This document shows, piece after piece, positions 1 to 61,649 of a stretch of DNA of 64,000 nt. Source of the DNA: Morinoia aosen (lineage: Eukaryota > Arthropoda > Malacostraca > Amphipoda > Talitridae); the NCBI GenBank assembly GCA_030386875.1, contig CM059557.1, positions 62,140,514-62,204,513 on the forward strand, read 5' to 3'. The position numbers and the translations under genes are program-made. Below the pieces are notes generated by a model, which ran no database searches, was not told the origin of the DNA, and worked only from the letters and a program-made list of their open reading frames with translations. Numbering within the stretch: position 1 is the first letter of the stretch; each line of letters opens with the position of its first letter.

Positions 1-904
1 TTTTTCAGCACTGAAAAATTGTCTAATTTCAGAGTTGTACCCTCTAGCGGCGCTAGAACTGGTGTATAGTTAATAAAGCCGCTACTTTCTTTCTAGCGTA
101 AGCACTACCCTATATACAAGGTCACATGGAAGCCACTTGGTTACGACATGGATTGTCCATGTTTGCCATATGGGTTCTACTTGCCCATGCTATGTGGAAA
201 CCGCATGGACTTTTGGAAAGTGGCCCCATGTGGTGCCCGCCTGGTTAGGACACATGTAGAGGATGTGGGTCCTACATGGAAACCATATGCCTCGTGGCCA
301 ACCCTCGCTTCTGCCAGCTAGGATCCATGTGGTAATAACGCATGGGTTCCATCTATAAATCAAGCAGACTTACCATGAATTCTGCCGACGTGTATTATAC
401 ATTGTTTCCATGTGGTTATCAAAGTTGGTTGGTCGCTCCGGTGCCGTTGTAATGCCACGTCTTGTAGCAGATGACCTGTTGAGAACACGTCCCCCCAAAA
501 TGCCATTCTCATCACGCACTGAACCTTGATACCATACATGGTTATGTTATGTAAACTGATCGCAAATGTTTCGCGATTTTCTTTGAAGTTATTTATCCGC
601 CGGTACAGTAATTAGTGGCGAAACGAATGGCATCTCAGTATTCATAGGGTTTCATGGCAGCCTCCACCACTCGTTGTCGCGTGTTTTAGTGACATATATA
701 AGTATTATACTCATATTTATGTCACAAGGCTGTTAATTCATAAAGGCGTACATGCATGGTGATTGAAACTTCAACCGACGATCTCGGACTTATTGACTTG
801 TAATATGAGAAATTCAAAAATTGAATTTTTCTAAAATTAAGGCTTTCAAAGAAGACAGAAAACTATGAACCCTCCATGGTATAACTTATACCAAGCTATA
901 TAGG

Positions 905-1882
905 GTCTCCCGACAAAAATGTCCCCGACGTTTTAATTGCTTATATCTCCGCTTCAAATAAACATATTTGAAATATATTTTTTCACAATCTAATACATTT
1001 GGTTTTCTTTTCGAATGTTTTAAATTTCAAGTTTTTGACAACCGTTTAATAACGACTTTACAGTGATCGATTTACTGAAAGAGGTAAAACTAATTGTCCA
1101 AAGGAAATGTTTTAAAAACAACACTGGTGTTATACTTCATTTCTCAATACCTACTGTTAAAAATAATTTCCCAATTATGTATCCTACATACCACCAAGTA
1201 TTCTTTATTTTGGGTTATTCTGAGAGGTTACTCTGAGAGGTTATTCACTTCCTTATTTCATCATTTGAAGACGCCTAAAATGCAGCCCAATAACTACCGA
1301 AAAATTTTCAGCGTGTTGGAATATGAAGCAACGAAAAACTGCAAAATTTAGAAGAGCATTTAATATTCTTCTAATTTTTTGACTGTGTAATACACAGTCT
1401 TCTTTTCTTATCAGGAGAGTTCCTTTCTGGGAATTTTTTATTAAATGTTTTTCTAACTTTTTCACAGTTTTTCAATGCTTCATATTCCAATACGCTGAAA
1501 ATTATTTGATAGTTAGTGAGCTGCATTTTAGGGGTCTTCAAATGATGAAATAAGGAAGTGAATAACCTCTCAGAGGGTTTAGATACTTGGTGGTATGTAG
1601 GACACATCATTGTGAAATTATTTTTAACAGTAGGTATTGAGAAATGAAGAAGAACACCAGTGTTGTTTTTAAAACATTTCCTTTGAACAATTAGTTTTAC
1701 CTCTTTCAGTAAATCGATCACTGTAAAGTGGTTATTAAAAGATTTTCAGAAACTCAAATTATTCAAAAAGGAAACAAAATCACCTACATTGTGAAAAATA
1801 GTAGTGGAAATATGCTAATTTAAAGCGGTGATATAATCAATTAAAAATTCGGGGACATTTTTATGGGACACTCGGTATAGGT
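905..1882. repeat. Large imperfect palindrome, arms about 470 bp
   Basis: The left arm (about 905-1370) reappears as its reverse complement on the right (about 1395-1880). Shared landmarks are ATGTCCCCGA near the outer ends, GATCGATTTACTGAAA, ACAACACTGGTGT, and CTACTGTTAAAAATAATTTC. Open frames inside (for example 1371-1721 on the - strand) follow from the repeat and match no protein I recognise. A related copy lies at 11384-11930. The class of element is unknown to me. Confidence 0.8.
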
Positions 1883-3385: not shown

Positions 3386-4925
3386 TTTACCAATAATTGT
3401 ACTGATGGATTTCTCATTGAGTATTTCAAATTAAAATACTTACGTATATATATATGTATATATATATTTTCTTACTAGTTCAAATACCACAGTAAACTTT
3501 AGAGAAAAAACGTTCAAAAATACTATTTCAATCATGACTAGTTTAGTACAACAATATGAAATACAAGCTAGGCCTACAATATTCTTTCAGCAAAGGGGGA
3601 GAAATGGCTTACAGTCATCGAAAGGCTTGCACATGTATACGAATTAAAACTCTGCATATTTATCTTCCACTTCTAGTAACTTATCACTTCCCATCACAAC
3701 GGAGCGCTTATGAGAGAAAATATTGTAATAAAATCAGATGTTGTTAATGACCTGTTAATGACAGAAATTGGCTACAGTTCAACAGAAAGTTATTTACCTG
3801 CTATATCGTCTTAACCAGCAGCGCATAAGAACTAAGCTCAGATTTAATGATTTCAACATAGATTATGAAAAGCTTGTCACATTAATTATCCCTTTCATTC
3901 ACTAACACTATGAATTGAAATATATTCCTTGAAATGTAGAGGAGCACACTTGACACTGATCACGTCACGAGATGAAGTAAGTAACGGTCACGAGTGACGC
4001 AATACGGAAGTTGAACCATGGCGCAAGAGCGTCGGAGGAGAGGGGCAGGGGAGGGGGATCCGTGAAATCAAGTCTGCAGAGCTGCCAGATGCGCATGCTT
4101 TCGAAACCGAAATTTCAAAACTTATCCAAATAGATATATGTGTGTGTATCAATTCATTTATTGGTGTGTTCTGTCCTCTAGTATTATTAAACGAAAGCTT
4201 TTGAAATGGTACCTCACGCATATAAAGGATTCATTTATCACAATTATTTGTTCAATGAGATTAAGAGCATATATTTCACGGGCCATGATAACCTTATTAG
4301 TTATACAAATGTTTAAAATGAGCATTACAACTGATTAAGACACAATTAAGTCTTACAAAGGCGAATGTTAGATTTTATAATACACGGAATATATTTTATC
4401 TCAGCTTGATCCTGAATACTACAAAAAATAAAGTATATATTTTTGACCCAGAAGCAAATAGCAGTCAAATTTGAGACTAATCAGACGTGCAAACGGGTAA
4501 TGCCCGTTTGTTATAAATTTGTTATAAATTTGTTATAAATGCAGTATTTAATATGTGCTCTGAAAGGTATCTCTGCGATTTTATCAAAACACGAGTAACA
4601 GCAATTTTATTATAGATATAAATACAATATTTTTATAGCCGTTCAAAATCCAGTACGTTGCAAACACACGGGCCTTCCATGTGGATAAATTTATTTAAGC
4701 CAATGTGGTAGCTAATAGGAAACCCCACGTGGACCCCACGTAACAAATCCAGCATGCAATGTACTAACATGGCTATGATGAGTATATTCAGTGGCAAATC
4801 CATTTTGCCAGCTGAAATCCACAAGACCAGCAACTAACCATGTGGTTTCCATGTGACATTGTATGTAGGGTAGAACCCCTAGGTTCGAGAATTACTAGTT
4901 GCGCTACTAGCGCCGCTAGGTTTCT

Positions 4926-8648: not shown

Positions 8649-11383
8649 AATTATCGCCGTTCGATGGACGTCACCCATCAAACGTGTGTTTTGAAATTGT
8701 TGCGTACACTGTATTATGCTTCAAACAATATGTCGAATATTTAATTTCATTTTCAGACTTTTCCCAAAATGTACACAACATATTAATGGACACTTTAAAA
8801 TGCTGTACAATAAGAACATTGGAGCGTTCACTTGCGTTCATTTCTGTGCTTACGATATATTTGGGTGTGTTTATATTTCATTCTTCAACGAAATATCACC
8901 CATCAGCTGAAATAGTTTGATAAATCACGCAGGAGTTAAAGCTGCAAATGTACTTTATTTCACGATCAGTTTTATTACTCAGTCTTTCCAAGTTTTAATG
9001 AAAGGATGTTAGTTTAGTTTTTTTTTCAAATATTTGAACTTGAAGAATTATTATATTTTAACAATGTCATGAAATTTTAAACTCTAACGTGAAAGAGGAA
9101 TTTAGTCGTTACATGTGTTTTAAACATGTCGCAAACCCAAGTCCTTATAAAATATTATGGATCAAATTATTGTTATTATAAGTTAGCCTTCCCAGTTTGA
9201 ATCAGAATTAAATAACAAAAAGGCATAATCTATTACGCCCTTAAAGCGTTGCATACACACGTGAAATATTCGCAATGTTTTTTCGTCTAGTATTATGTAC
9301 TACTTCAAAAATTTATTTCGAACATTCAAACGTTACTGTCCGTAAGCCAATTTTTATGGTAACTTAAAATTTGATCAAGGAGCTCGTTCAATGCACTCGT
9401 GATTCAATCTCTCAGTTCATGACAACGAGTGAGTCATCGAGCATCGCGTAGGTAGTTAGTGATTTTGTTAGGTCGCGATTGGTGTTGTGACTGTGTTCTT
9501 CGCAATTATTGAATTAGATAAATTGTGACGTAGTATTGCATAAGATGCCCAAAACATGTTTTATTATATATTATATTTATATATTTATTTATTATTTATT
9601 ATTATCTATTAGATTGTTTACCTGATTGACCGTTGTGCACATCCTTAGATCTTTCTTCATAAATAAATTGTTTAAATTGTTTAAATTGTTTCTAGTCGGT
9701 AGGCGAGCTCAAGCTGAGTTCATTTTTCTATACTTAGTTATGTGAAGTGTTTTCCGACCAACCATTTTGAAATTAAATCAGTGGTATTCATACCAAAGTA
9801 CTCTGGATAGATTACAGAGCATGTTTACGAAACAGATCACATTCACTTGTTTCATTTACAAGTTATGTTCATGAACATTGGACGCATGAAGAAAGTTGAA
9901 TTGTTTATGTAAACTCAGTTGAAGCAGCTCTACTGGAGAGCTCGATAAATAAATAAATAGGTAATCCGCTATGTTTCACGCTACGATAATAAAGAATTAT
10001 GTTGGTAGATGTGGAATGTCTCTTTCCCCATGATTTGTTACATTTCTTCATGAACGATTTTTCTGAATTATTTTTTGCTTGTAAACAGAATTGATTGAGC
10101 TCCATTGTTTTTTCATATCGTTTTTGAGTCGTGATAATTAGAGTATAAAACTATTTAAATGATGCGCTTGGTATCCTGTGCGGGGGCACATGTTGCCATG
10201 AAAGGATGTCCTCAAAATAGTCCCTTCAATATCCCATCTCCTGGAAATACCTTTGTTGTATTAAGGGAGGCTTAAATTACATTTGGTAAATGATAACAAT
10301 GAAAAATTATAATTGTTCTGCAAGATTCTTTGAAGAAATATAAATTTAATACTATAACTCATGTGTAACAGAGTGCCCTCAAAGACTGGTTTCTTTTTTC
10401 AAATATGTATTGATGTCACCATATGTTACTCATCTTCCCCATATTAATAAGTTTAATTGTATGTTGACCTCGAACGAAAAATAAGACCAACATGCTTTTT
10501 ACAGTGCTTTGCTTCAGTGCCAACAAGAACAGAGAAGAACGCTGGTGATAATCAAAACTTAGAGTTTATAATGAAAAATTGAGTGCTGTAAATACATAAC
10601 ATGGCTAAAAAATGGCACTGCGTGGTATGACTCCTGCACTTTTGGGACTTTATATTGGGACTTTTTACATTGTAATTAGTTATTGTTTTGTCTTTTCTTA
10701 ATGATAATTTTTATTCATTTTTTTTTATCCATGTTAGCTCGTCTTTCTGTCTTCAACTATTCTCTTGTTTAATTTGTTTTTCAAGATTTGTAATTCTGTG
10801 CATTGAGTCCTGCGCAACAGTGCACCCAATATATCATTTGAGGGTATGGTTTGTTGGAAATATTTTTTTTCGTATATAATTGCACTAATCATGCTTTACT
10901 TTTTTCTAAAACCTTATTCGTAAGGCCAATAAATTTATTTGTAGTTCACTGCTTTTATTTTTCATTTGGTTCTCTATTGAAATATTTTCCTGTGTTTGAA
11001 CTTATAAAAAATGCTATTCAGCATCCAGCCAATTCTACAAAGAATAATACATGTATAAAAGGTGTTGAATAATTCGATGCATATATTTTTACCATATACA
11101 GAAAAACTCGAAATAAAACGATTTTCATAAGTGACAAAACTCTTTGCTACCGAGAAATAATGATGTAACCGACGAGTAAAATCTAACTTCTTTGGCAGGC
11201 TGTTGGCGCGCGCTTCAGGCTATTCCTACGATAATCTGTAATTATTTCAGGTCATCATTTCTCGAAAACGAAGGAGTTCAGAGGTTTGTGTCACTCATGA
11301 AAATCGTTCTATTTTGTTTTTTTCGGTATATAGTTAAAATATGTACATCGCATAACACAACACCATGTATTCACCGCGTGTTC
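8649..11383. other. No recognisable gene
   Basis: AT-rich sequence with low-complexity patches: TATTTATTATTTATTATTAT near 9570-9610 and four AAATTGTTT-like units near 9665-9692. No domain, splice-consistent exon or structural RNA was recognised. Confidence 0.5.
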
Positions 11384-11930
11384 CACAAAAATGTCCCCGA
11401 CTTTTTAATTGATTATATCTCCGCTTTAAATTGACATGTCTTTTTTCACAATGTAGTAAATTTTGTTTACATTTCGAATAATATAAGTTATGTAAAATCG
11501 TTTAATAACCACTTTACAATGATCGATTTACTGAAATAGGTAGAAAAACTAATTGTTCAAAGGAAAAGTATCATAAACAACACTGGTGTACTTCTTCATT
11601 TCTCAATACCTACTGTTAAAAATAATTTCACAATGATGTATCCTACGTACCACCTAGTAATTAAACCCTATGAGAGGTTATTTACTTTTTTCATCATTTG
11701 AAGATACCAAAAATACAGCTCACTAACGATGAAAGAATTTTCATCGAATTGGAATTGAAGCTACGAAAAACTGTGAAAAAGTTGCAAGAGCATTTAATTT
11801 TCTTTCTAATATTCTAGCTATGCGATACACTGTCTTCTTATCAGGGGAGTTCCTTTCCGGAAATTTTTCAGTCAGTGCTTTTCTAACTTTTCAATGTGTT
11901 TGATATTGAATGTGTATGACATTGATATTC
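11384..11930 (+). repeat. Second copy of the 905-1882 repeat family, one arm plus centre
   Basis: This stretch follows the left arm of the palindrome (ATGTCCCCGA, TATATCTCCGCTT, GATCGATTTACTGAAA, AACAACACTGGTGT). It then continues into what is the central part of the other copy (ACTGTCTTCTTATCAGG, AGTTCCTTTC, TTTTCTAACTTTT). It contains one arm only, so the palindrome at 905-1882 may come from two head-to-head insertions rather than from a foldback design. Confidence 0.75.
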
Positions 11931-18895: not shown

Positions 18896-19148
18896 ATTTT
18901 TACTGCGCAATCCTCAGGCATTTTTTAACCTCTGCATGCTAGAGCGGCTACACTACGCTACGCCACAGACCAAATACAAGAAGATACGGGATTCATCAGT
19001 ATTTTGCTCCGAGCTGGAGACGTAAAAAACGTCATCACCAATGACCACTCAGGGCGCAGAGGTTTCATGGCATCATTTGTTTTGAAATTGGTGCGCATTG
19101 ATTGGTTGACATTATTAGAAGAAAGTTCTGCATCATGGCACAGTGATC

Positions 19149-19443
19149 ATGGCGCCTTGTATTCGTGTGAAGCGTTGTTGTATGACTAATTGCGAAAATA
19201 ATAGCGTCAATCGCCCTGATTTAGTTTATTTCAATTTTAGAAAGAAAACTTGTTCTGCGTGGCTTGAAGCGTGCGGTAATGAGGCTCTTCACTTGTTGAA
19301 ACTGCGAAATTTAATTAGGAATTACTATGTGTGTGCCCAACACTTCTGCAAATGGGATTATTCATATGTGTTATCTCCATTCAAAAATAAGTTCTTGTTA
19401 AAACCTGATGCTATTCCACAACAAACTGTGGTGGACAAACCAG
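19149..19443 (+). CDS. P-like transposase exon 1: THAP zinc finger
   Basis: The first ATG (19149) opens a 98-residue exon starting MAPCIRVKRCCMTNCENN. THAP features are present: a Cys pair (C11 and C15, or C10 and C15), a central Trp (CSAWLEACG), the distal C-x2-H (YYVCAQHF), and a closing LKPDAIP that stands for the AVPTIF box. THAP domains bind DNA, in P transposases the element's own ends. The exon ends at a donor CCAG|GTAATG in phase 1, and reading on gives a stop within four codons. Upstream, an in-frame GTG at 19143 is not a likely start. Phase 1 fits the proposed start of exon 2. The THAP call is firm; joining to the downstream exons rests on phase and on the known THAP-plus-core layout of P transposases. 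Confidence 0.85.
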
Positions 19444-21810
19444 GTAATGTGTAATTGTTAAAAATATCTAGTTGCAAATTGCAATTGTCTTTGTTTTCAG
19501 TATTTCGTAATGCAGTCTCATTCATGAGAGTGACACCTTTGAATTGTTTTCAATTTTGTTATGAGATCTAATGATGACAATGTAATGCTTTATTATTGGA
19601 TGCTTTATTATTGCAAGGCTTTATTGGAGTTGAATGGTAATGGTTAGATATTAAATTATTGTGTTATTTCTGATTGAAATGCATTACTGTAGCCTATGCT
19701 TTAAAACTTATTTGCATTATTCTTTTGCAACATCATGAATAATGCAAATATTTTGATTAATTTGATTGTTTGAGAATGACCAAAACTCTGATGCAAATGC
19801 ACTGCGTGTAAAAATATATGGGCATCATTCTGCTGAAGCGCTCCTAAATTAGTAAGTCAATTGATCAAAGAAGTTACTAGAAATTAGTACACGTAACTCA
19901 GAGGAATTCTATTTTAAATCATATTGTTCTAAAACTAGTGACAGAAACCTTCAATTGTAGGTTACTATGTGAACTTCAATAAACCTAGAAACATAAATAT
20001 TGTTACTTATTGAGATTGCTTCTAAAATGCAAACTTTTTGTGCTTAAAAGTGATTTTTACTAATTATTATTTGGAGCATATGTAAATAAAAAAAGTCATG
20101 ACACACAACTTCCCCATGAGTGACCACTCTTGCCTGCTTCAAGTTGTGTAGGAGTGAACATTTGTTTAAATGTAGCAATGAAAGGTCCATTCATTATTGT
20201 GATGACTGGCAAGTGACTGAATACTACCTAATTTTTCCATGTTTGATAATTATTTTCATTTCACAATTTACCCTATGGTATGTCTATAGTGTCAACTTGA
20301 GACCACTCTAGAGCCTTTTAACTTTAATTTAAAAATGCTCAAGTTCAATTTAATGAAGCTCAAGTTGAATTTAAAAATTCTAAAGTAGGCTATATTTTAA
20401 ATTAGGTATTAGGCTATATTAGAATTATTAGTTAAGAGATTGGCCTCTAATTTGGTATTACATTGTATGTATAATACTATTTTATATAACATGATATAAT
20501 AAACCACTAATGTAGCAGCCTGATTGTTTAAATATAAGTTTGAAGCTATGTAATGCTGAACTTTTCAGTCAGTGCAGTTTGCTAATTGTCACAGTTACTT
20601 ATTACATAAAGTTTATTTGGACCATTTTTTGTAAATAGCTATAAATACCTATGATCTGTTTAGCAAATGATTCATAGGTAAAACTTGAAGAATGTCAAAT
20701 TAAGTACAAAATCACAGCACTTTTGTTTGTCTGATATTATATTTACTCTATTTTCAGTGCCAGTCATTTTAAGCAATTATGCATTGTCACAAATAAGCTT
20801 CAATTATATTATTATTGCATAGGTGTGCAATTTTAGAAACATAACCTTTTCAACATTGAACTTGATGTTTTTTAAATTGAACTTGAGCTTTTTTAAATTA
20901 AACTTGACCTTTTTAAAATTAAACTTGACCTTTTTTAAATTAAAATTGATATATTTTTTAAATTAAACTTGGCTTTTTTGTAAATTAAAGTTGAAATTTT
21001 TTGAATTAAACTTTTTTTTTTTTAAATTAAACTTGATCTTTGTTAACTTGAATTTTACCTTTGTTAAATTGAACTTCAGCTTTCTTATACTAAAGGTAAA
21101 AAGCTGTAGTAGCATTACAACCGTTATCTTTTCACAAGCGGTGCATTTGTGTCTGAATGTTTACTCCAAACATATTACATACCATAACATTCAAATTTAC
21201 TTTTCTCTTACTTTTCGGAAAGATTGAACATGTTTTCTATGGGTATGTACAGAACATGCTTATGTTGTTCTTAAACAATCAAAAATGACAAAGTAATTGC
21301 ATGATAGTTGATGTTAGGAAAGAACAATGCAGGTAATTTTATACCATAATCTACAGTGCTGCATCATAGTCATTAATAATATGAAATATCTAGTATTTGC
21401 AATATTGCTAGTGTTAGGATAAAATCTTGCAAATTAGTTGTTCAATTTAAGCTACAATACTTCATATTAATTATCAAACAATAATGACATACAATTTCTA
21501 TCCATACCCTTTAAACCCTCCAAAAAAACTTTGCATTGCAAATGGGCAAATGAGTATCAACTTTTGTGGTCCGGTTTCCAGTGACTCCTCTTGCAAAAAT
21601 CAAGCAGTTCATATTAACCGGGTGTTTCATTCAACAAATGAGAATATCTGCAATAGGCACAATAGAAGTGAACCTTGAGAAGCATTTGTAAATCATTTGT
21701 TGGTGTTGGAAAGATGACTTACAAAAATTGTAATTACCTCACAAAAGCAAAACTTAATATAGGATCTGTTTGGTGTCAACAAACTGAGGCATAAATGCAC
21801 TGCTTGTGAG
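19444..21810 (+). other. Intron 1 of the P-like gene
   Basis: AT-rich intron without genes. At about 20336-20400 and 20850-21085 it carries degenerate direct repeats of about 20 bp based on TTTAAATTAAACTTGACCTT. The acceptor is uncertain: either TGTGAG|AA (exon from 21811) or GAGAAG|GT (from 21814). Both keep the phase and neither has a good pyrimidine tract. Confidence 0.5.
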
Positions 21811-23279
21811 AAGGTAATGGTTGTAATGCTCATGGTGCTGCCCAACGCTCAATCCCAGGTGCTGGCAAGCCGTCAACCCCAGGTGCTGGCAAGCCGTCAA
21901 CCCCAGGTGCTGCCAAGACGTCAACCCCAGGTGCTGCCAAGACGTCAACCCCAGGTGCTGCCAAGACGTCAACCCCAGGTGCTGCCAAGACGTCAACCCC
22001 AGGTGCTGCCAAGACGTCAACCCCAGGTGCTGGCAAGCCGTCAACCCCAGGTGCTGCCAAGCCGTCAATCCCAGGTGCTGCCAAGCCGTCAATCCCAGGT
22101 GCTGCCAAGCCGTCAACCTCAGGTGCTGCCAAGCCGTCAACCTCAGGTGCTGCCAAGCCGTCAACCCCAGGTGCTGCCAAGACGTCAACCCCAGGTGCTG
22201 CCAAGACGTCAACCCCAGGTGCTGCCAAGACGTCAGCCCCAGGTGCTGGCAAGCCGTCAACCCCAGGTGCTGCCAAGCCGTCAATCCCAGGTGCTGCCAA
22301 GCCGTCAATCCCAGGTGCTGCCAAGCCGTCAACCTCAGGTGCTGCCAAGCCGTCAACCTCAGGTGCTGCCAAGCCGTCAACCCCAGGTGCTGCCAAGCCG
22401 TCAACCTCAGGTGCTGCCAAGCCGTCAACCTCAGGTGCTGGCAAGCCGTCAACCCCAGGTGCTGCCATGCCGTCAATCCCAGGTGCTGCCAAGTCGTCAA
22501 TCCCAGGTGCTGCCAAGCCGTCAATCCCAGGTGCTGCCAAGCCGTCAACCTCAGGTGCTGCCAAGCCGTCAACCTCAGGTGCTGCCAAGCCGTCAACCCC
22601 AGGTGCTGCCAAGACGTCAACCCCAGGTGCTGCCAAGACGTCAACCCCAGGTGCTGCCAAGACGTCAGCCCCAGGTGCTGGCAAGCCGTCAACCCCAGGT
22701 GCTGCCAAGCCGTCAATCCCAGGTGCTGCCAAGCCGTCAATCCCAGGTGCTGCCAAGCCGTCAACCTCAGGTGCTGCCAAGCCGTCAACCTCAGGTGCTG
22801 CCAAGCCGTCAACCCCAGGTGCTGCCAAGCCGTCAACCTCAGGTGCTGCCAAGCCGTCAACCTCAGGTGCTGCCAAGCCGTCAACCCCAGGTGCTGCCAA
22901 GACGTCAACCCCAGGTGCTGCCAAGACGTCAACCCCAGGTGCTGCCAAGACGTCAACCCCAGGTGCTGCCAAGACGTCAACCCCAGGTGCTTCCAAGACG
23001 TCAACCCCAGGTGCTGGCAAGCCGTCAACCCCAGGTGCTGCCAAGCCGTCAATCCCAGGTGCTGCCAAGCCGTCAATCCCAGGTGCTGCCAAGCCGTCAA
23101 CCCCAGGTGCTGCCAAGACGTCAACCCCAGGTGCTGCCAAGCCGTCAACCTCAGGTGCTGCAAAACCTTTCATTACTTGCGCTAAAAGGCTTTCAGCACA
23201 AAATGCACCCAACTTTGTCACTTCTGATGTTGCGCAACAGGACACAAAAGTGAACATTGTAATAGCTTCATCAGTACAG
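21811..23279 (+). CDS. P-like transposase exon 2: repeat-encoded linker
   Basis: In the frame set by exon 1 (phase 1) the exon reads EGNGCNAHGAAQRSIP, then a long run of 8-residue units, PGAAKPST / PGAAKTST / SGAAKPST, with variants PGAGKPST and PSIPGAAK. It closes with a unique stretch of about 39 residues ending NIVIASSVQ at the donor ACAG|GTCAGT (phase 0). The linker is rich in Pro, Ala, Ser/Thr and Lys, with no predicted fold, so it is likely an extended basic tether between the DNA-binding THAP finger and the catalytic core. At about 490 residues it is far longer than the leucine-zipper linker of Drosophila P. All three + frames and a - frame are open across the repeat, so the frame choice rests on splice phase at both ends. 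It could instead be a minisatellite inside an intron. Confidence 0.55.
21856..23163 (+). repeat. 24-bp tandem repeat, 55 in-register copies
   Basis: The word CAGGTGCTG recurs from 21856 to 23152, a span of exactly 54 periods of 24 bp, so no copy has gained or lost a base. Unit variants (CCGTCAACC, CCGTCAATC, ACGTCAACC, ACGTCAGCC) are arranged in larger blocks. The ACGTCAGCC variant recurs 432 bp (18 units) apart, at 22230 and 22662, with like neighbours. Confidence 0.97.
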
Positions 23280-23623
23280 GTCAGTCATGTTGAAAGTACA
23301 GCTTACTGCATTTTCAGTTACAGATTGGGAAATCCATTAGGGGGCATAGGGTAAGCAATTTTAGTTTAGTTACCTTTGTCAATCCTATGCTATGGGCATT
23401 GTTGACCCCAGGGGATTTTGTTTCGTGACCTAAGCTATAAAAAGGCCTTCGGCAATCCTAATTTTGTGTGCTCACTTTGAGTCGTCCAATTTTCGTACCT
23501 TTTTTGCTATCATTTCTTTTCCTGTTTTTCCTCTTCTTTCTTAACTCGCTGTTTCTGTCTGTAGGATTTTATTGATTGCAAGTAAATTAACGAGTGTAAT
23601 TGATGTTTTGTACATTATTCCAG

Positions 23624-23773
23624 AGCTCTTCCAAGAGTGCCAATCCTCCAATCCATTGTAAACGGCGCTTGTTTGCAACGTCTGAGGAATGTAGGGTTGC
23701 CCAAGAAGGTCCAGCTATTGCGTCTGGCACTCCTGATCCTGTAGAACCTGCCATCAGTGCTAACTCCAAGGAG
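23624..23773 (+). CDS. P-like transposase exon 3: short basic exon similar to start of exon 4
   Basis: Acceptor TTATTCCAG|AGCTCT and donor AAGGAG|GTGTGT enclose 50 codons, phase 0 on both sides, matching exon 2's end and exon 4's start. The product begins SSSKSANPPIHCKRRLFATS. Exon 4 begins SSLGKRKW and soon reads PRLPCKRRLIESP. Shared features are the AGCTCT start, the CKRRL motif and the nearby R-(V/I)-A, so this looks like a duplicated exon. CKRRL with flanking Arg/Lys could act as a nuclear localisation signal. No known domain; function unknown. The ORF runs on past the donor to 23863 without recognisable content. Confidence 0.6.
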
Positions 23774-24324
23774 GTGTGTGGAAGGGGCATTAGAGGTAGA
23801 CCAAAGTTAGGGTGGGTGAATGGGATGGGAGTGGCCATTGCGTGGTTGTGGTGTGTTATTTGAGGAAGCCAGATGACTCGGAGAAGGTAAATGTTAATGG
23901 ACGGTGCTTGTGAATGCCTGATTTTGACGCAGCCCCGAGGGGGTGTGGCGGACGTCTTGGACACGTATGGGCGCAGGTCTGGGGTGCACGTGACTTTCAT
24001 GATACAGCAAGGGTAAACCAGTGAAAAGTGCCTGCTGCCGAATTCGATAACCTAAAACCCAAAGTTTTGTGTGTGAGTGGTTAGGACTTGGCGCTTTTGG
24101 CTATACCTTTCCTTCTTGAAGCGAGGGAACAACCTTAGATCTATAGTTATGTCGAAAAATGGTGTAAACAATATGCCATGAGTATACTATTTCTGTGAAC
24201 ACCGATTGTGGGATGATTTGATTCCATTTAGGCAATGTAGAAATTTTTCTCAATATTATTATTAGGACATGTAATAAAATTAACTAACTTTATCTGTACT
24301 TCAATCATTTATAAATTGTTTCAG
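23774..24324 (+). other. Intron 3 of the P-like gene
   Basis: It begins GTGTGTGG and ends ATTGTTTCAG. No other feature was seen. The duplicated-exon idea predicts residual similarity between this intron's 3' end and intron 2's 3' end; only the ..TTNCAG|AGCTCT acceptor context is obviously shared. Confidence 0.6.
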
Positions 24325-25946
24325 AGCTCTCTAGGTAAAAGGAAATGGTCCGAGTTGCAAACCTCTCACCATCCAAGGTTGCCTTGCAAAAGACGCCTAA
24401 TAGAGTCTCCTTCCGGAACTCGGATTGCCCTTGAATGCTCCTCTACATCAACTACAAAGAGAGCTAAGAAAGAAAGAAGGCATTGTAAGAAATCACGGGT
24501 TTTGTACAGGAGATTGAACACCGATGCATTTCTGAGGAGCGTTTCTGGCAGACTTGGACCGTACCTCAGTGAATTTGTCAAACATAAGTTGAGGGGTAAA
24601 CAACGGTACAGCATGTATCATAAATGGCTGGCTCTAAATATCCTTGTCAGTTCATCTGTCAGCCATTATCAGCTAATGAGGAACATCATACCCTTGCCTT
24701 CATATACTACTGTGGTGAGTGTGCTGCGAAATTTCAAGTTATCACCAGGCATTAGTAGTAAAAGTGTTTCCATCTTGAAGATGAAAGTGAAACCCACAAA
24801 CCCGAAAGATAAACTATGCTTTATTTTCGCTGATGAAATGTCCCTCCGTAGAGGGTTATCATATAATCAAGAAAAAGATACCGTAATAGGATATGAAAAT
24901 ATAAAAACCGGAAATTGCAAAAACTGGCTACTTCTGCATTTTGTGTTATGGCTTCTGGGGTAGCCAAAAAGTGGAAACATCCAATTGGCTTCTACTTTAC
25001 ATCATCCGCTATGCCCTCTGCGTACATCAAAGACATCTTGCGGGAGTCTGTTGCTGCAATGGAAAAGCAAGGCTTCGTTGTTTTAGGCATAACGAGCGAC
25101 CAAGGCAGCAATTTCCAAAAAGCGTTCAAGGAAATGGGCTGCTCATCAACCAATCCTGTTGTAGAATTTGGAAATAAAAAGTATATTGTGTTAAAAGACC
25201 CTCCTCATTTAATTAAAAATGCTCGAAACTTTCTTCTCAAAGGTGATTTAATCATGCCCACTCTAAATTCCACAGCTTCTTGGCATCACATCAAACAACT
25301 TTTTGAATTGGAACAGAAAAGTAGCATAAAATGTGTTCCTCGTCTTTCGCATGAGCATGTGTACAATTTGAAATTTGCCCAAAGGATGAAAGTCAAACTA
25401 GCCACTCAAGTGTTGTCGAACTCAACAAGTGCGGCTTTAGACTACTACGTCTCAAAACAATCCCTCTCAGCTTCTGCGTCAGCAACCAGCTTGTACTGTA
25501 AAAAATTTAATGATCTATTCGATATTTTTAACTCTCAGTCTCCTGCAGAGAAAGTGCCTCTCAGGAAACCACTCTCACAAAGTTCTCCGTCTATTGAAAT
25601 CTTGAAGGACTACATCTCTTGGCTACAAGAATTGCGCTCATTAAACCCCCAACGAAGATGTTTCTTTATTGACGGGTGGATTCAATCCATCAATGCACTT
25701 TTATTGTTGAGAACAGAAATCAAGGAAGATGTCCTACCTTACATGTGCGTCAGGAATCTGTGTCAAGACGAGCTGGAAAAATTCTTTGGTAAAATCAGAA
25801 ACGTACAGAAGTTTCCAACGCCTCAAAATTTCATTGACGCTTACTGCAAAGTGTCGACAGCTTCTCTCATGAGGGCACCAATGAAGAGCAATGTTGAGGT
25901 GGCCGAAGAAGACCTGAATGTGGAAATGTGGAACATAGTTGAAGAG
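24325..25946 (+). CDS. P-like transposase exon 4: catalytic core, frameshifted
   Basis: This is the RNase-H-like core of a P/THAP9-type transposase. Conserved landmarks are the first Asp in FADEMSLRRG (codon 24832), VIGYEN, CVMASGVAKKWKHPIGFYF, the second Asp in GITSDQGSNF (25098), LKDPPHLIKNARN, and the Glu in QDELEKFFGKIRN (25776). The distance from second Asp to Glu is 226 residues, close to the 228 between D303 and E531 of Drosophila P; the part between corresponds to the inserted GTP-binding region. The reading frame shifts between about 24895 and 24920: upstream runs to a stop at 24961-24963, downstream opens in another frame. The exon is 1622 nt with phase 0 at both ends, so one missing base (expected 1623) explains everything. 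No other stop is present. The donor is GAAGAG|GTAATG; a stop follows four codons later if it is unspliced. Confidence 0.9.
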
Positions 25947-26283
25947 GTAATGAAGAAATAATTTTCTTGATGTTGTTCTAACGTCATAGATTCTTCATTC
26001 TGATTGAGGCTACTTGTATGAAGCGTATATACTTGACGTTTAGGCTCGTATCAGTTCTAATTACACTCTAAAATGACGGTACTGCCATTGTAAATTTACA
26101 CGAGCTGTTCTACAAATTAAGCCATTGTTGTTGGGCTCTAGTGATGTATGTTTCACTTCTATAATGTTTAGTTGTATATCATTCCATGTGTATTTATTAC
26201 AGTGATATTAAGTTAAGTCTGGACGATTCTTATTGATAATTTTGTCACGATTTCTTATGGCTGTGTTACGGTTTGATTTCCAG
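25947..26283 (+). other. Intron 4 of the P-like gene
   Basis: Runs from GTAATG to GATTTCCAG; no feature inside. The reading frame is open over the acceptor, but phase 0 joining gives the continuous NIVEE-VPEEAPEA. Confidence 0.7.
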
Positions 26284-26853
26284 GTTCCTGAAGAGGCCCC
26301 TGAGGCGGTTGTTCTCTCCTACCAAGAAATAGAGGCAGCCAAAACTTTCTCCGCATCTACGATTGTTGGAGGGATGTTCGAGTCAATGGAGGTAGATGGT
26401 GCCGTTACCTACTTCGCTGGGTATATAGCCCATAAAATCAACCAGTTTCACCTCAAGTTGAAAGGATCAACCTTACCTTCATGTGAAACTTGTTCTCGTA
26501 TTCTCACGAATCAAGATTTATCTATGCACCTCTTCACAAGCTTTAAAGAGTATGTTGAAACTTCCCCGCCTTCTCTCAATTACTGCAGCGAAGAGTTCAT
26601 TGGGGAAATAATTAATTTTGAAAGAGTATTTTTATTTTGTTTCGAGAATTATCCTCATGTTATAGGGTTTCGCAAACTAGTGAATAATCTCTTCACAATC
26701 ATCTCCGCATTTAACTTTTGCTGCGTTCGGGTCAACGCATATTTTCAGAATTACTTTGTAAAATGTAGAACACTTCAATGCATTAGGCATCTACAAAAAG
26801 GGGTATCTTCAACAAGTGTGAATGAAAAAGTGAAGAAAATTACACATCAGTAA
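26284..26853 (+). CDS. P-like transposase exon 5: C-terminal region
   Basis: Starts VPEEAPEAVVLSYQE after GATTTCCAG and ends with TAA at 26851 after KKITHQ. It contains the P-family C-terminal signature (VTYFAGYIAHKI), a Cys pair (LPSCETCSRIL) and a long helical part (IGFRKLVNNLF; VNAYFQNYFVKC). In P and THAP9-like proteins this region closes the catalytic domain. No internal stops. With exons 1-5 joined and the one-base gap in exon 4 ignored, the protein would be about 1370 residues; without the repeat linker it would be near the usual size of THAP9-type proteins. Confidence 0.88.
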   Translation, partial: VPEEAPEAVVLSYQEIEAAKTFSASTIVGGMFESMEVDGAVTYFAGYIAHKINQFHLKLKGSTLPSCETCSRILTNQDLSMHLFTSFKEYVETSPPSLNYCSEEFIGEIINFERVFLFCFENYPHVIGFRKLVNNLFTIISAFNFCCVRVNAYFQNYFVKCRTLQCIRHLQKGVSSTSVNEKVKKITHQ

Positions 26854-27284
26854 CTGCACCTAAACAGTTCAATAGAAAATTTAATTAACGCTTGTAACGT
26901 TTTAGCTAATTGGGTATGTGGTTCCCAAATGCTTTTGGGGTCACCACTCCTATTCAGGAGACTAAATGTATTCTATTGATTTTCTTTCACTTTTTCGTTC
27001 GTATTGCTGTCTGGGAATACCGTATCGTGCCAATCGCGTTGAGAGGAAATGAATTGAAACCACGGTTGTACTCAGCTTTGACTTTTAATGAGTCTGGCAG
27101 AAGCAGGACACGAGATCAGCAAAGGCCACGTCCAGGGGGGGGGGGGGTAAGCCAGACAAAGGCCAGGATAGTTTCTTCCAAGTCCAAGATCTTCGTAGGA
27201 TTTGTTCAGGCGAGAATTTTCTTGTGGCAGAGATGCTGCTGATGACGATGACGCAAGGGTGAAGGCGTGTCATTGGAATGTAAA
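26854..27284 (+). other. Downstream region of the P-like gene
   Basis: Probable 3' untranslated sequence. It contains a run of 12 G near 27136-27147, a likely slippage or assembly-sensitive spot. No other feature seen. Confidence 0.4.
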
Positions 27285-27525
27285 CCGACAGAGATGTCGA
27301 CTGTCAGAGGTGTCGACTGTCAGAAATGACGGAAATATTGACTGTCAGTGATGTTGACAGAGATGTTATTGACTGTCAGTGATGTTGACAGAGATGTTAT
27401 TGACTGTCAGTGATGTTGACAGAGATGTTATTGACTGTCAGTGATGTTGACAGAGATGTTATTGACTGTCAGTGATGTTGACAGAGATTATTGACTGTCA
27501 GAGACGATGACAGAGGTGTTGACTA
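27285..27525. repeat. Minisatellite, 31-bp unit with TGACTGTCAGTGATGTTGAC
   Basis: About five close copies of a 31-bp unit (GACTGTCAGTGATGTTGACA then GAGATGTTATT) from about 27339, flanked by more diverged units on both sides. The unit holds an internal inverted word, TGACTGTCA / TGTTGACAGA. Confidence 0.9.
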
Positions 27526-30264
27526 AGCGAGTGTAAAGAGGAGTGATATTGTGGTAAAAAGAATGCGTCGTAAAGAGGAGTGTAGTAAAGATTGTAGACT
27601 GAGAATGTTGAGAGAAGGGATGTTCCAGACGCCGATTGTATCTAAGGTCTTAACACTGGCCCTTGTAGATTTGTATGGTTCATATTTGGCTGTTGCGCCC
27701 TACTTTATATACTGAAATGGCCCGGAAGTCTACCCTTGTTTTGAAAACCGTGCGGCGGAAGGATGCTCTTTATTGTAGACTCGTAAGGTCTTTAATAAAA
27801 TAATTGTTTTTCTAATCTAAGTTTTTGGGTGAATTTATTCACTTTCGCAGTGCTAAATTATTTACGATTTTCATAGTTATTTTACGGCTGAATTTATGTT
27901 TGAGTTCAAATTATTGAAATGCAAGGTTACTGTGAATTCTCGTGAGTAAAAGCTTAGACTTATATTTAATTATTACGACTTAAACTTATATTTGGAAATT
28001 AGGAATTGAGGCTCATATCTTAATATTAAAATTTAAACCTATATCAAGAATATGTACATGGTGCTAGCGCACATTGATTTTGCTACACTCTTACCTCGGT
28101 AAAGTTCCATTGTTGATGGATTCACTAGTATTGAAAGTGTTATTGGGTCAGGCTTTCTTGTATTATTGAATGAGCTGAGTAATGGTGATTCTTTTCTATC
28201 ATTTGGGTTCCTTTTGGGTCACTAAGGGTAGTTTTTCAGTGTATTGTATTTTATTTACAAGCTTGAGAGCTGTTTTGTGAAGCATTCAAATTTGTATTGG
28301 GAAACGTATTTTAAATATTAACTTCATTGGAAATTATTGAGATTTATTTTCTGATTCTCTTGTCACAATCCTGTTCGTAACTCCCCTACTTGATATCATT
28401 GGTTTAGTGTAGTATTCATTTGCCGTAAAGTAACTACATTCTTCCTTATTGATTTGCGCGAGTTTAAATATGGACAAGTTTTCTCGGTAAACAACCATTC
28501 CTGAAATATATGCTAATCCCATTTTAATAACATGTGCCTGCCGTTCATTGTCCTTAGTTAGAACGCGTTTGTACTAAAAAATGTGCAGCAATTCGGTCCT
28601 TGTAAATCACAACTTTATAACAGCGCCATTAGGTGCTACATGACATTTTATTGGTCTCAGCTCTAGGACCCACCGAGAGTCTGCCGGTCTTGCAGCCTTA
28701 CAATAAAATATCAAAGGAATTTCTCCAATTCGTCGTCGTTCCGTCATAGAGAAAATACCATTGCGTGTAGAAGAATATCCCCTCAATTGCAGGGAAATAA
28801 CCTAAGTGCATGAAATTACCCTATATAATGATTAGACATAGTTACGAAATGCAGCAATGCTCACGTTAAAGTCGCCATTTAGTTTTTGAAATTACCCTAA
28901 TTTGGGGTAATTACCCTAAACGAGATGATACCTGAGAGCCAATGAGGTTTCGCACGGAAGAAACGTCACTCCTATTTGAGTAGCTCATTGGTTAGAGTCA
29001 CTCATTCGACTAGCCAATTGAGAGCTAGTATTCGGATTGCGAGGCAAGGATGTCCCCTTAGAAGTTGTTCCTCTTCTTATGTATTTTCTCTGTGGCTACG
29101 CGGAGCAGCGGCATCACGCCGCATCAGTTGCACAGCGCAGCCCGGAGAGGAAAGCAGTCGATGAACGTGCGCTCCGGTCAGTCGCTATCGCATGTGCGAT
29201 AGGGAAGAAAAAACAGGAAAGACAATGACTCACGCTACCTGTCTATTTCTTTCATGTATAAGTAATTTACAGTCAATCAAAGACATAACTACCCAACTAT
29301 GTTTCATACTAATTTCGGGTTAAGCTATTTAAGTAACAAGAAACAGGTTGGTTTACTCGAGATGAATGCTATACATTTAAAAAATATATACACGGTATTC
29401 ATTTTTTATTATAGTTTTATTTACTCAAGTACAAATGCTATTAGAGGAATTATTTAACTTGTACATTTTCTATATAGAAATAAATAATGAACATGACACA
29501 CCTGAGCGACTACTTGACTATGCAAATTTGATGTTGACTGCCGGCTCTCTACCCCATCATCAAGAAATGACAACATATCATAGCAAGATTGAGTCAGTCG
29601 TTGTGCCTCGTCTGTAACTGCTTCCATTTTTTTAATGCTGAACATTTTATTCGGCCTAAAAATACTGTGTCTTCAATGTGTGAATTTTATTTCTACTAAT
29701 TCAAAATGATAGAAATACACCATAACGAATGAACGTTTCCTCTGTTCAGCAAGCACAAAACTAAGCTCGAAATGTCAATTGAGCCTGAAAAAGCCTGAAA
29801 ACATTGTCAATTGAGCCTGAAAATATTTCTATCCATGGTGGCCTCTTTTACCGGAATTTTATTCTAAAATGTCGTCTATTATCTCTTCCGAGCTTTTCAA
29901 GGCAATCACAGTTTCGAAAACGATAAATCAAGTTCCAAAATCTTCGGCTCTATACTAAGTGGTAGCCAGGTTACTGGTCAAATATCAACTGTCAATGCCT
30001 TTTCAGGGTCTAGAGATATTAATATAGTTTGCAAGCAAATTCTTATAAATTTATTTCTTTATATGTTGAATTATTGACGTTTCAGAGGCATTCCTTTACT
30101 TTGAATTGGTTTCAGAGCTGGAGCGCCAGCTCGCGTGGCCAATCACTCATTGTAGAAAGCGTAAGCAATAAACAGAAGTATAATGGAACACTCCATGATA
30201 AAGTGCAACTGCAAAATGGGAGAGCTGTCAGGCGATGACCGTGAATTGATGTGTAGTTCACTCC
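27526..30264. other. No recognisable gene inside the right part of the P-like element
   Basis: AATAAA at 27794-27799 is a usable polyadenylation signal, either for the P-like gene or for an unrecognised element. A CpG-richer patch lies near 28980-29230, including the inverted word CTATCGCATGTGCGATAG. Otherwise AT-rich with short open frames only. Confidence 0.45.
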
Positions 30265-36922: not shown

Positions 36923-37419
36923 TTAAAGACGAAAATTTTCACCAGAACAACAGGGGGACAACGAATCAGGAGTGCTGCCTTCCCCTTCGTAAGCATAATC
37001 TCGTAAATCATCACTCGTTGGTTGGTATGAGCGATCTTTCTTGGTGCGAATACAGCTGCAAGATCCACCGCATGAACCCGTGGACTCGGCTTTCTGACAA
37101 GCTTCCGAAGAACAGGAGCATCTTCTTTTCGGAAGCTGTAGTCTTTTGTCGCATCTCGTACAATCCCAGTCTATTCCAGTGGCATGCATGTCATTAAGTC
37201 GTTCCTTGCCATCTGGGTGTAGCCTGTGCAGCGCTGCTTCAGCTACAGTTGATCTGTCCAAATCTGGTACATTCACTCGATCTCTAGAAAATTGGCCATC
37301 GCTCGTGCTCGCAGCTGCATGAAATTTTGTAGCTTTGGTGTTCTCTTCACACTCAAAACTGTGAGGAGGATTCACGACAAATGAAGATTGAGGGGCTGGA
37401 ATTTTTAAAACGTCCACAT
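36923..37419 (-). CDS. Classical cadherin exon 7: catenin-binding tail
   Basis: Acceptor TTCTTTTACAG|ATGTGG; phase 1 joins exon 6 (KI-D-VDVLKIPAPQ). The key feature is SDDLRDYAYEGEGSTPDSL near the end, the beta-catenin-binding signature of classical cadherin tails (Asp, Tyr, EGxGS, SL order). Upstream the tail is unusually rich in Cys and basic residues (WDCTRCDKR, KRRCSCSSEACQK, CGGSCSCIRTKK), unlike the acidic membrane-proximal tail of most classical cadherins. The frame ends with TAA at 36925-36923 after CCSGENFRL. The last conserved tail element of classical cadherins (around DYLxxWGPRFxxLA) is missing, so either this is a short terminal exon (a - strand AATAAA lies about 220 nt on) or it splices at TCTG|GTGAAA (exon end 36943) to an exon further on. 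Confidence 0.8.
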
Positions 37420-38914
37420 CTGTAAAAGAAAATATCATAATCACTCTATATAGTAAAGTATATCTGTACGCGATCGAATAAGAAACCAATCACTGAAAAT
37501 AAAAAAGTGTTTGACCTTAGCAAATGATAATTTGGCTTCCAGGGTTTTTGACCTCTAGATGACCTCTAGTTTTCCTATCAGAGCAAAGACATACAACTAA
37601 ATTAATTTAAAACATATAAATAAAAGATCATGGAATGGAATCTAATTAATAAATTTATGTTCCCATTTTTATGATTTAATTTCACTTTACTTGTTTTAAT
37701 TCATGAGGTATACGTCGTTCAAAATCGAATATTGACTGAAATATATGAAATGAGTTGTGAAACGAGCTTCGTCGTCGATTATCAAAAACATGAAAGGGTA
37801 AATGAAGGAAAGTGTACCCAATAATATACCCTTCTTCATGATGCAGTTGATTCATACTTTAGTTTTTCGTACGACACATATTTTCAGTGTTGATATCTAT
37901 GAGAGTTAAAGTTTGTTAAGCTTGCCATAGGATTCAAGATTTGTTGTATATATTAAGCGAACATATTTAAGTGACCGTAGAGAGCGTAAAATTGAATAAC
38001 CGCACAACACGGTTATTTCAGTGATTTTTTTCAGTGTTCTGTTACAAATTGCAGAAAAAATTATCACATGTCTTGCACAGGCTTGAAAGTGTTGAAGGTT
38101 AGAAAAACATAACTGGCATGTTAAGCGCTGCATAATTTATGATTGCCCAGGCTGAAACAAAATATTTAAAGCTATTTCTCCTCTGTGATAATGCAATATT
38201 TTTATCAGTAAAATGCCAGATCACCTTCTGAAATTATTTGAATTTTCTTGACAAAAAATACCTTTTCCAACCCAATAGCTATTAAAAAATTGGGAAGTAT
38301 ATAATTCATTTTAATGCAGTATAAAGTATTAATAACCACCCGCAGGGTGCCTATTCTAAGCTGACTGATGTTACTTCGTTGGACGCTTTTATGAAAATTC
38401 GCTCGAAATATACAGCGCCGAATGCTACTTTCATATTCCACCTTCACCCGCCCACCATCCCTTCGTTTGCCTTCGAGGCAATTCGGAATCATGCTCCAAT
38501 ATCTTAGCCAAAATGTTCAAAACAAGATAAACACTGATTTTTGCAAGGTAGGGCTCGAGCCGTTCAGAATTTCCATGCCTAGACAGCGCTAGACGTTATA
38601 CTGTCTATAAGGCTTGACGATTTCATCTTTTTCTCTTAGATGACACGTGAGAAATTTTCTCATGTTAGCCCGTTAATTTGTCATCCTAGATGACACATGA
38701 AAAAATAGAAAAAATTTCTAATCAGTACAGCTGAGTTTAGTGTTCTCCAACGCATCATTGGTACTAAAACCGTGCATGCATTAAATGTTCTCGTAAGAGA
38801 TTGTAAATCGGTTTCAAAGGAAAAAATTCGGGAAAACAATCAATGACTTATACCACACTTTCATTCTCTATTGTGAGGAGTCTACTTTGTACAAACAATG
38901 CTCCACCAACGTAC
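37420..38914 (-). other. Cadherin intron 6
   Basis: Donor TTG|GTACGT to acceptor TTTTACAG. No other gene or mobile element recognised within. Confidence 0.7.
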
Positions 38915-60321: not shown

Positions 60322-60517
60322 CTGGCAATACAGAAAAAATTATTTAGTAACTTCAAACATCAAATCAACACTATACTTATTAATGACGCGTTAAATCGTC
60401 CTAGCCCAAGAAACAAATTAATAAGAAAATGTCAAAGAAAATTATTTCATTTCATTGATCACACCAACCTCTATTGAATATCTATTGAACCTGAATAGAT
60501 TTTAAAATCTTCGTTAC

Positions 60518-61105
60518 CTCCATGCGTTTAGTGTGTGCCAATTTCCATCGTGGAGAACAGCGTCGGATAAACAAACTTGTGACACAATGGATCTCGACGA
60601 CGGCTGAGGACTCCTTTTGTGTGGCTCATCGTTTCGTTTTGTTCGCATTCTGGGGATCGATGCATTACCACTAGACGATAACGGTTTGTTGATCATACTA
60701 TGCAGCTCCTGCGTCTTCCAGTCATCAGATGGCATTTGTCGGTCGCCTCTATGTACTAAACCATCAGATGAATTTTCTTCGATGTCTCCGCCGTTTTCAT
60801 GATCAATTCTGAATGGGTATGGGTACCAGCCATCGAAAGTGTGAGATTTATTTCCGATTGAATGGAAAGGAGACTTATTGTTTCTGTGTTTTTCGTATTT
60901 CTGTCTTGATCGCCTCGAACGATTATTCGATAAAGGGGACTTGACTTCAACATTATCTTTTAAAGATTCAAATGAATCTTCATTCATCAATCTGGAAAGT
61001 AGCGTAAGGCACACTCTGCCATCTGCAAGATGCAGTCTCAGCTGATCTCTGTTTCGTTGGGATGACAGTTGAAGAATTAGTCCGGTGGAAGAACGGGTCC
61101 TCATG
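60518..61105 (-). CDS. Classical cadherin exon 1 (of window): laminin G, first part
   Basis: Acceptor TGTTTTACTGCAG|CATGAG in phase 2; donor CATGGAG|GTAACG in phase 2; 588 nt. It starts MRTRSSTGLILQLSS and RDQLRLHLADGRVCLTL (laminin G strands) and ends VCLSDAVLHDGNWHTLNAW, where DGNWH is the conserved turn. About 120 residues between them are a hydrophilic insert (RSRRSRQKYEKHRNN, SSSGNASIPRMRTKRN) not expected in laminin G. The ATG near its start is internal; the gene continues upstream beyond the window. A 196-bp intron separates it from exon 2. The classical cadherin identity comes from the whole exon set. Neural-cadherin type (Cadherin-N/N2) is the best guess from the laminin G-EGF-membrane order. 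Confidence 0.85.
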
Positions 61106-61649
61106 CTGCAGTAAAACATGTAGAACGAAAATTTGTAAGCACATCATTATTACTACTGCTACAAGTGTAAGACAAAAATGAGAACCAACATAAAATAAAC
61201 ATTTTTATTTTTTTTTCACAAACGTTTTGGAATGTTATAATTCCATCTTAAAATCGCGATGGAAAAACACACAAAAAGGTCAACAAACTTGAAAAATAAA
61301 AAAGTTCATAGAAGCTCAAAAAATAAGTAAACAAACGTGTATAAAACTCAAATCCTACTTCTCATTCAACAGCAGTAAAAACGATCATTCTCATTGACTC
61401 ACTTACCCACCTTTTCTTAAGTACATACATTCATACATTTGCACACGGGAACCCAACATAAACAGACGCGCGTAAACACATTCCACATTCATACACATAG
61501 AAATATGTCGGTAGGTAGAGGCAATGTTCAGTTAACTTATCAATGTTATCACTGATAATTCCGTCCGAAAGTTACTAGAAAAAACTACTGTCCCGCTCCC
61601 TCACCTTGAGCGTAGCAAAACAGTAATTGTACGTGTAATTATCTTTTTT

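What the first reader, a model, noticed from the sequence alone, without database searches (positions are those of the whole stretch)
19149..26853. P-element-like transposase with intact catalytic triad and a very long repeat-encoded linker
Seen: THAP finger exon, core with D (24832), D (25098) and E (25776), and C-terminal exon, all joined in compatible splice phases. Known: Drosophila P uses D230, D303, E531; the second interval here is 226 residues against 228. Unusual: about 440 residues of PGAAKPST-type repeat lie between the DNA-binding finger and the core. Such a flexible basic tether could change how the enzyme reaches its two ends, or may mark a host-adopted gene.
Basis: partly seen in the sequence, partly recalled or inferred. 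Interest (0 to 1): 0.7.

Follow-up and report, generated by a model that had tools for sequence, protein, structure and literature searches.

The report
Jumping gene with stretchy protein tether
This is a recently mobile relative of the fruit-fly P element whose enzyme seems to join its DNA-gripping finger to its cutting core by a repeated spacer that differs in length from copy to copy; the copy in this window has a broken reading frame.

Summary
The window holds a whole P-superfamily DNA transposon, about 10.1 kb (18964-29094), between exact 7-bp target duplications. It is not a host-adopted gene: the same genome holds at least 64 other copies of the core at 97% or more identity, and 6 of 8 siblings checked have exact 7-bp duplications.

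"Intact catalytic triad" is wrong for this copy: the first Asp lies in a different frame from the second Asp and the Glu. The one-base break (24918-24923) is private; 29 of 29 sibling loci are open there.

The linker is most likely coding. The window alone allowed an intronic minisatellite, but relatives (61% identical in early exon 4) carry a different 24-bp array with the same octapeptide pattern (GTSRPATP against GAAKPSTP), same exon position and splice phases, open in 14 of 17.

Among 36 near-identical copies the linker has 9-62 units and 25 lengths, its frame never broken. No transcript or activity data were available.

The parts
18957..18963 (.). left target duplication GCTACGC
   Evidence: exact match to 29095-29101
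18964..29094 (+). whole P-superfamily element, about 10.1 kb
   Evidence: left end: 38 of 39 other scored copies begin at 18960-18964; right end and duplications from 8 siblings
18964..18978 (+). left terminal inverted repeat
   Evidence: 13 of 15 bases match the right end, then decays, 18 of 31
19149..19443 (+). exon 1, THAP zinc finger, ends in phase 1
   Evidence: PF05485 3.5e-11; 295 nt, same length, phase and GTAATG donor in 3 of 3 relatives read
19542..21535 (.). degenerate foldback structure inside intron 1
   Evidence: inverted matches of 66-82%
21859..23279 (+). exon 2, octapeptide linker and tail; its acceptor is inferred and weak
   Evidence: phase 1 in, phase 0 out; homologous exon in relatives
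21858..23153 (+). 54 units of 24 bp, GAAKPSTP type
   Evidence: 9-62 units in 36 copies
23624..23773 (+). exon 3, partial duplicate of the start of exon 4
   Evidence: 0 of 2000 shuffles reach the peptide score; acceptor region also alike, 3 of 500; open in 29 of 29 siblings
24325..25946 (+). exon 4, P-type RNase H core with GTP-binding insertion
   Evidence: PF21787, PF21788; 6p5a
24832..24834 (+). first catalytic Asp (D230 position)
24918..24923 (+). private one-base frame break of this copy
25098..25100 (+). second catalytic Asp (D303 position)
25776..25778 (+). catalytic Glu (E531 position)
26284..26853 (+). exon 5, C-terminal part and stop
   Evidence: phase 0 join; open in 28 of 29 siblings; no Pfam or PDB match
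27336..27520 (.). 31-bp tandem array downstream of the gene, inside the element
29080..29094 (-). right terminal inverted repeat
29095..29101 (.). right target duplication GCTACGC

Best explanation
A copy of a recently active cut-and-paste transposon of the P superfamily. Its gene encodes an N-terminal THAP finger, then a probably disordered, lysine-bearing linker of octapeptide repeats, then a P-type RNase H core with GTP-binding insertion and a C-terminal part. Shown: the homologies of finger and core, the element ends, 7-bp target duplications, dozens of near-identical copies, copy-to-copy change of repeat number in whole 24-bp steps, a homologous octapeptide exon in a diverged subfamily, and a private frame break in the window copy. 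Inferred: that the array is translated as a tether; that the finger holds sites inside the ends while the tether lets the core reach the termini; and that the array changes length by slippage or repair copying, faster than point mutation.
For: Domains. Mobility: 65 full-length rows at 97% or more identity among 115 scored of 856 candidates; ends and 7-bp duplications. Linker: 36 arrays, 1040 units, no frame break or stop, 9-62 units; relatives with an octapeptide exon, 14 of 17 open, 15 of 15 measured stretches multiples of 3 with 6-nt steps, same exon 1 length and phase in 3 of 3, codon-position pattern 12 of 16 against 1 of 8.
Against: No transcript. Acceptors for exon 2 are weak in the window and an array-free in-phase acceptor exists at 23196. 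Within the young family the array shows no amino-acid constraint: 8 synonymous, 21 non-synonymous, 0 stop, near expectation without selection; exon 4 is also near neutral, 14 and 24. Five of six frames of the array are open. The window copy cannot encode the whole core as assembled.
Confidence: 0.85

Rival explanations
1. The array is an intronic or exon-edge minisatellite that is spliced out; exon 2 begins at the last unit or at 23196, and the protein has no long linker. Each unit also carries an in-phase AG, so variable use is possible.
For: Weak acceptors and the array-free in-phase alternative; open frames from all three acceptors tried; neutral substitutions; tandem repeats at exon edges are kept or spliced out in human paralogues (PMC2812944, abstract and passages).
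Against: Relatives code the same octapeptide pattern with different DNA units, in frame, behind a pyrimidine-rich tract that ends in CAG.
Confidence: 0.12
2. The frame break is an assembly or base-calling error in a short A-run, and the real window copy is open like its siblings. This is compatible with the main reading.
For: A single one-base change in a homopolymer; otherwise 4 private coding substitutions in exons 4 and 5.
Against: None of the 29 sibling assemblies shows it; reads were not available.
Confidence: 0.35
3. A domesticated, single host gene derived from a P element (THAP9-like).
For: It has its own introns, and the window is otherwise host-gene-like, with weak cadherin and laminin-G matches downstream.
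Against: Ends, duplications and copy number.
Confidence: 0.02
4. Programmed -1 frameshifting joins the two core frames.
For: A run of A and a predicted 10-bp stem just after it.
Against: The fold is no better than shuffles (z -0.26); 29 of 29 siblings read straight through without any shift.
Confidence: 0.01

Closest known systems
Drosophila P element and its transposase (PDB 6p5a)
   Same: THAP finger, split RNase H core with GTP-binding insertion, the three catalytic positions, short inverted ends
   Different: 7-bp instead of 8-bp duplication, an element of about 10.1 kb instead of 2.9 kb, ends alike over only about 15 bp, octapeptide linker, extra exon 3
Galileo (P superfamily, Drosophila)
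   Same: mostly 7-bp target duplications (PMC4168063, passages), THAP finger and P-type core
   Different: Galileo has inverted repeats of 0.5-1.2 kb (PMC3688188, passages); here about 15 bp
Zebrafish Pdre2 / THAP9
   Same: short 13-bp ends; about 100 disordered residues between finger and dimerisation segment, proposed as a linker (PMC10983969, section read); first catalytic interval of 87 residues there against about 89 here
   Different: 8-bp duplication; that insert is not described as a tandem repeat in the section read, nor as varying between copies
Other P-like THAP genes in the same genome (L004, L007)
   Same: P-like core at about 30% identity; in L004 the THAP finger is on the same open frame
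   Different: in L004 the stretch between finger and core has no octapeptide array and looks like a coiled coil by eye

Membership tests
P superfamily of DNA transposons | N-terminal THAP finger | tested here: met
   PF05485 3.5e-11, over the cut-off
P superfamily of DNA transposons | RNase H core split by a GTP-binding insertion | tested here: met
   PF21787 and PF21788 over cut-off; PF21789 under it, 16.2 against 24 bits; 6p5a
P superfamily of DNA transposons | D, D, E catalytic residues in one protein | tested here: inconclusive
   positions align; the window copy breaks frame between the two Asp; 29 of 29 siblings are open
P superfamily of DNA transposons | terminal inverted repeats and target duplications of 7 or 8 bp | tested here: met
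   13 of 15 bases; exact 7 bp in the window and in 6 of 8 siblings
P superfamily of DNA transposons | coiled-coil dimerisation segment after the THAP finger | not tested
   no coiled-coil predictor was run
P superfamily of DNA transposons | GTP-dependent excision and integration | not testable with these tools
   needs a bench assay
P element in the strict sense | 8-bp target duplication and 31-bp perfect inverted repeats | tested here: not met
   7 bp; 18 of 31 bases
Galileo | inverted repeats of 0.5-1.2 kb | tested here: not met
   similarity of the ends decays after about 15 bp
Host-adopted THAP9-type gene | no inverted repeats and no multiple copies | tested here: not met
   ends, duplications, at least 64 other near-identical core matches

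The most novel reading that the evidence does not exclude
The tether between DNA-binding and catalytic domains is a hypervariable coding minisatellite, so that new insertions found enzyme variants of different reach. Tether length would then tune which ends (own, shortened or foreign) the transposase can pair, and the array would be reset by repair copying at transposition.
Probability: 0.25. Interest if true: 0.82.

Novelty: new variant of a known kind. Interest (0 to 1): 0.62.

Why it matters
[quoted passage not shown] Here one genome supplies a graded series of nearly identical elements whose predicted enzymes differ mainly in tether length (72 to 496 residues of repeat), so tether effects on end pairing become directly testable. 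It would also be a coding minisatellite that turns over much faster than point mutation inside a mobile gene family.

Tried and rejected
Inverted-repeat scans of the window alone did not single out the true ends: the right pair (18962 and 29096) was listed but no better than shuffles, and only comparison with other copies settled it. My first view, that the array was an intronic minisatellite, rested on weak acceptors, five open frames and no synonymous change among 8 in the window; the diverged relatives overturned it. Distance-based estimates of very long arrays were wrong for three copies, which hold 15, 17 and 23 units; their extra length lies elsewhere between the two anchors. Absence of indels in the arrays is not evidence of coding: introns 2-4 show 2 indel events, one at the alignment edge, beside 39 substitutions. 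A Cornifin match of the array (1.2e-11) I take as composition. Programmed frameshifting was rejected. Single-sequence structure prediction failed (mean pLDDT 35.9). Searches of viral contigs, prokaryote genomes, phages and plasmids gave no relative; the repeat pattern had no exact match in viral contigs. The script found no exon 2 because of wrong orientation and patterns; one search replaced it. One search was malformed.

Full report
What was checked. The THAP finger is real (PF05485, 3.5e-11). The core matches PF21787 and PF21788 and the solved Drosophila P transposase (6p5a: 6.5e-25 for the later part; 0.2 for the earlier part). D24832, D25098 and E25776 fall on D230, D303 and E531, numbers given in PMC7776569 (passage); I counted the positions on the printed alignments. 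The second interval is 226 residues; the first is 266 nt, not a whole number of codons. PF21787 is matched at profile positions 2-61 in one frame and 63-137 in another. So this copy, as assembled, does not encode an intact core. Exon 5 has no Pfam or PDB match.

The element. The host genome (1.99 Gb, 29 contigs, unnamed) answered three searches. The later core piece (354 aa) matches 115 scored places of 856 candidates, a lower bound. Sixty-five rows, the window included, cover nearly all of the query at 97% or more identity; four more near-identical rows (94-99%) are partial; 46 rows lie at 63-73%. Of the 64 full-length rows other than the window, 59 show an open frame of 572-573 aa with no stop. 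Twenty-nine sibling loci (L010-L038, the best matches and so biased to intact ones) are 98.8-99.7% identical in DNA to the window from 23407 to about 27450. All 29 have an open 1623-nt exon 4 and an open 150-nt exon 3; 28 of 29 have an open exon 5; the splice dinucleotides tested are kept except one exon 3 acceptor (L026). None of the 29 has the window's break. The one other full-length row with a short 354-aa frame (L107) does not share it and has its own, different frame change.

Ends. Of 40 scored copies of the left flank (395 candidates), 39 are not the window; 38 of these begin at 18960-18964 and one begins earlier. The right end is at 29094. The ends match at 13 of 15 bases and then decay (18 of 31). 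The window has an exact 7-bp duplication, GCTACGC. Six of 8 siblings have their own exact 7-bp duplication; in L065/L073 the flanks differ and the terminus is altered; in L061/L069 the right terminus was not found. P and zebrafish Pdre2 give 8 bp (PMC7776569 and PMC10983969, sections and passages); Galileo mostly 7 bp (PMC4168063, passages). Hence a mobile element, not an adopted gene.

The linker in the window. It has 54 clean 24-bp units without indel, and 8 distinct substitutions, all non-synonymous. Five of six frames are open, and 14221 of 20000 shuffled units are open in five or more frames, so an open frame there means little. Acceptors for exon 2 are poor: the first, at 21858, is in the top 15% of AGs; three later units scored are near the top third; an array-free in-phase acceptor at 23196 is in the top 30%; exons 3 and 4 have acceptors in the top 3% (the scoring matrix was recalled and approximate). 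On the window alone the case was open.

Copies of the linker. From the rows I paired 35 with an exon 1 hit; four exon 1 hits other than the window's were left unpaired because their core row was partial or missing. All 35 array regions were fetched. With the window that makes 36 arrays and 1040 units: 9 to 62 units, median 25.5, 25 different lengths, 34 distinct arrays, every length a multiple of 24, no stop. Distinct substitutions are 8 synonymous, 21 non-synonymous, 0 stop, near the 31, 66 and 3% expected without selection. So the young arrays show no amino-acid constraint, and lack of indels is expected at this age. Exon 4 among the 29 siblings is near neutral too: 14 synonymous, 24 non-synonymous, 0 stop.

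Relatives decide. Seventeen of the 46 rows at 63-73% were read: L075-L077 from the THAP exon into the core (THAP 41-43% and early exon 4 about 61% identical) and L078-L091 around the expected array. Fourteen of 17 have an octapeptide array, GTSRPATP type, in one open stretch; L091 has one stop; L075 has lost the start and its frame (and has a stop in its THAP exon); L084 shows no array in the stretch fetched. All 15 measured stretches are multiples of 3, and several differ by 6 nt, not 24. The exon follows a pyrimidine-rich tract ending in CAG, in the phase that exon 1 needs, and runs to a phase-0 CAG before GTTAGT; L087 has a changed donor. Exon 1 in 3 of 3 relatives read is 295 nt, phase 1, with the same GTAATG donor. 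The window tail VTSDVAQQ resembles VTSDSSKQ by eye. Between the two unit types, DNA identity is 12 of 16 at codon positions 1 and 2 and 1 of 8 at position 3 (p 0.006), and the peptide score is reached by 158 of 20000 shuffles; the relative unit was chosen by me as the commonest form. In 102 relative octamers picked by a pattern that fixes G at 1, R or K at 4 and T at 7, position 3 is S in 90 and position 5 is P in 56. I take this as good evidence that the repeat exon is coding and older than the split of the two subfamilies, the DNA units having been replaced since.

Mechanism. Established for P: the THAP finger first holds internal sites, then the core pairs and cuts the ends with GTP (PMC7776569, section read). 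Inferred here: the octapeptide stretch (53 Lys in 432 residues) is a flexible tether between these acts. A published precedent is a disordered insert of about 100 residues in zebrafish THAP9 (PMC10983969, section read). Fast turnover fits slippage or repair copying after excision. Three searches of the open-access library (listings only) showed no paper on a variable tandem-repeat linker in a transposase; that is a narrow search. Tandem repeats in long exons that code for disordered protein are common (PMC12457776, passages).

Other features. Exon 3 is a partial duplicate of the start of exon 4 with its acceptor; in the three relatives compared, its best match is exon 4. Retention of intron 4 would end the protein soon after the catalytic Glu (ORF end 25961), which recalls the P third-intron repressor (PMC7776569, section read); an analogy only.

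Verdict. A young P-superfamily element with a copy-variable octapeptide tether; the window copy is frame-broken, or misassembled at one short run. New variant of a known kind.

Noticed in passing
L076 3464-3604; L077 (reverse complement) 3532-3672: Relatives carry a second upstream stretch that reads as Gly/Ala/Pro/Ser/Thr-rich peptide, with a 15-bp repeat; perhaps a further linker exon.
   Followed up: no
window 19542-21535: Intron 1 holds a degenerate foldback structure with 21-bp subrepeats.
   Followed up: partly
window 27134 and 27336-27520: A G-run and a 31-bp tandem array downstream of the gene; the G-run region differs in length among siblings.
   Followed up: no
window 36923-37489 and 60514-61143, minus strand: Weak matches to a cadherin tail motif and a laminin-G domain, just under Pfam cut-offs; likely pieces of a cadherin-type host gene.
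   Followed up: no
genome G000: At least 150 THAP-domain matches (150 scored of 515 candidates), some in other P-like families about 30% identical in the core (L003, L004, L007).
   Followed up: partly
window 896-1880 and 11373-11891: A large inverted-repeat element with a second copy.
   Followed up: no
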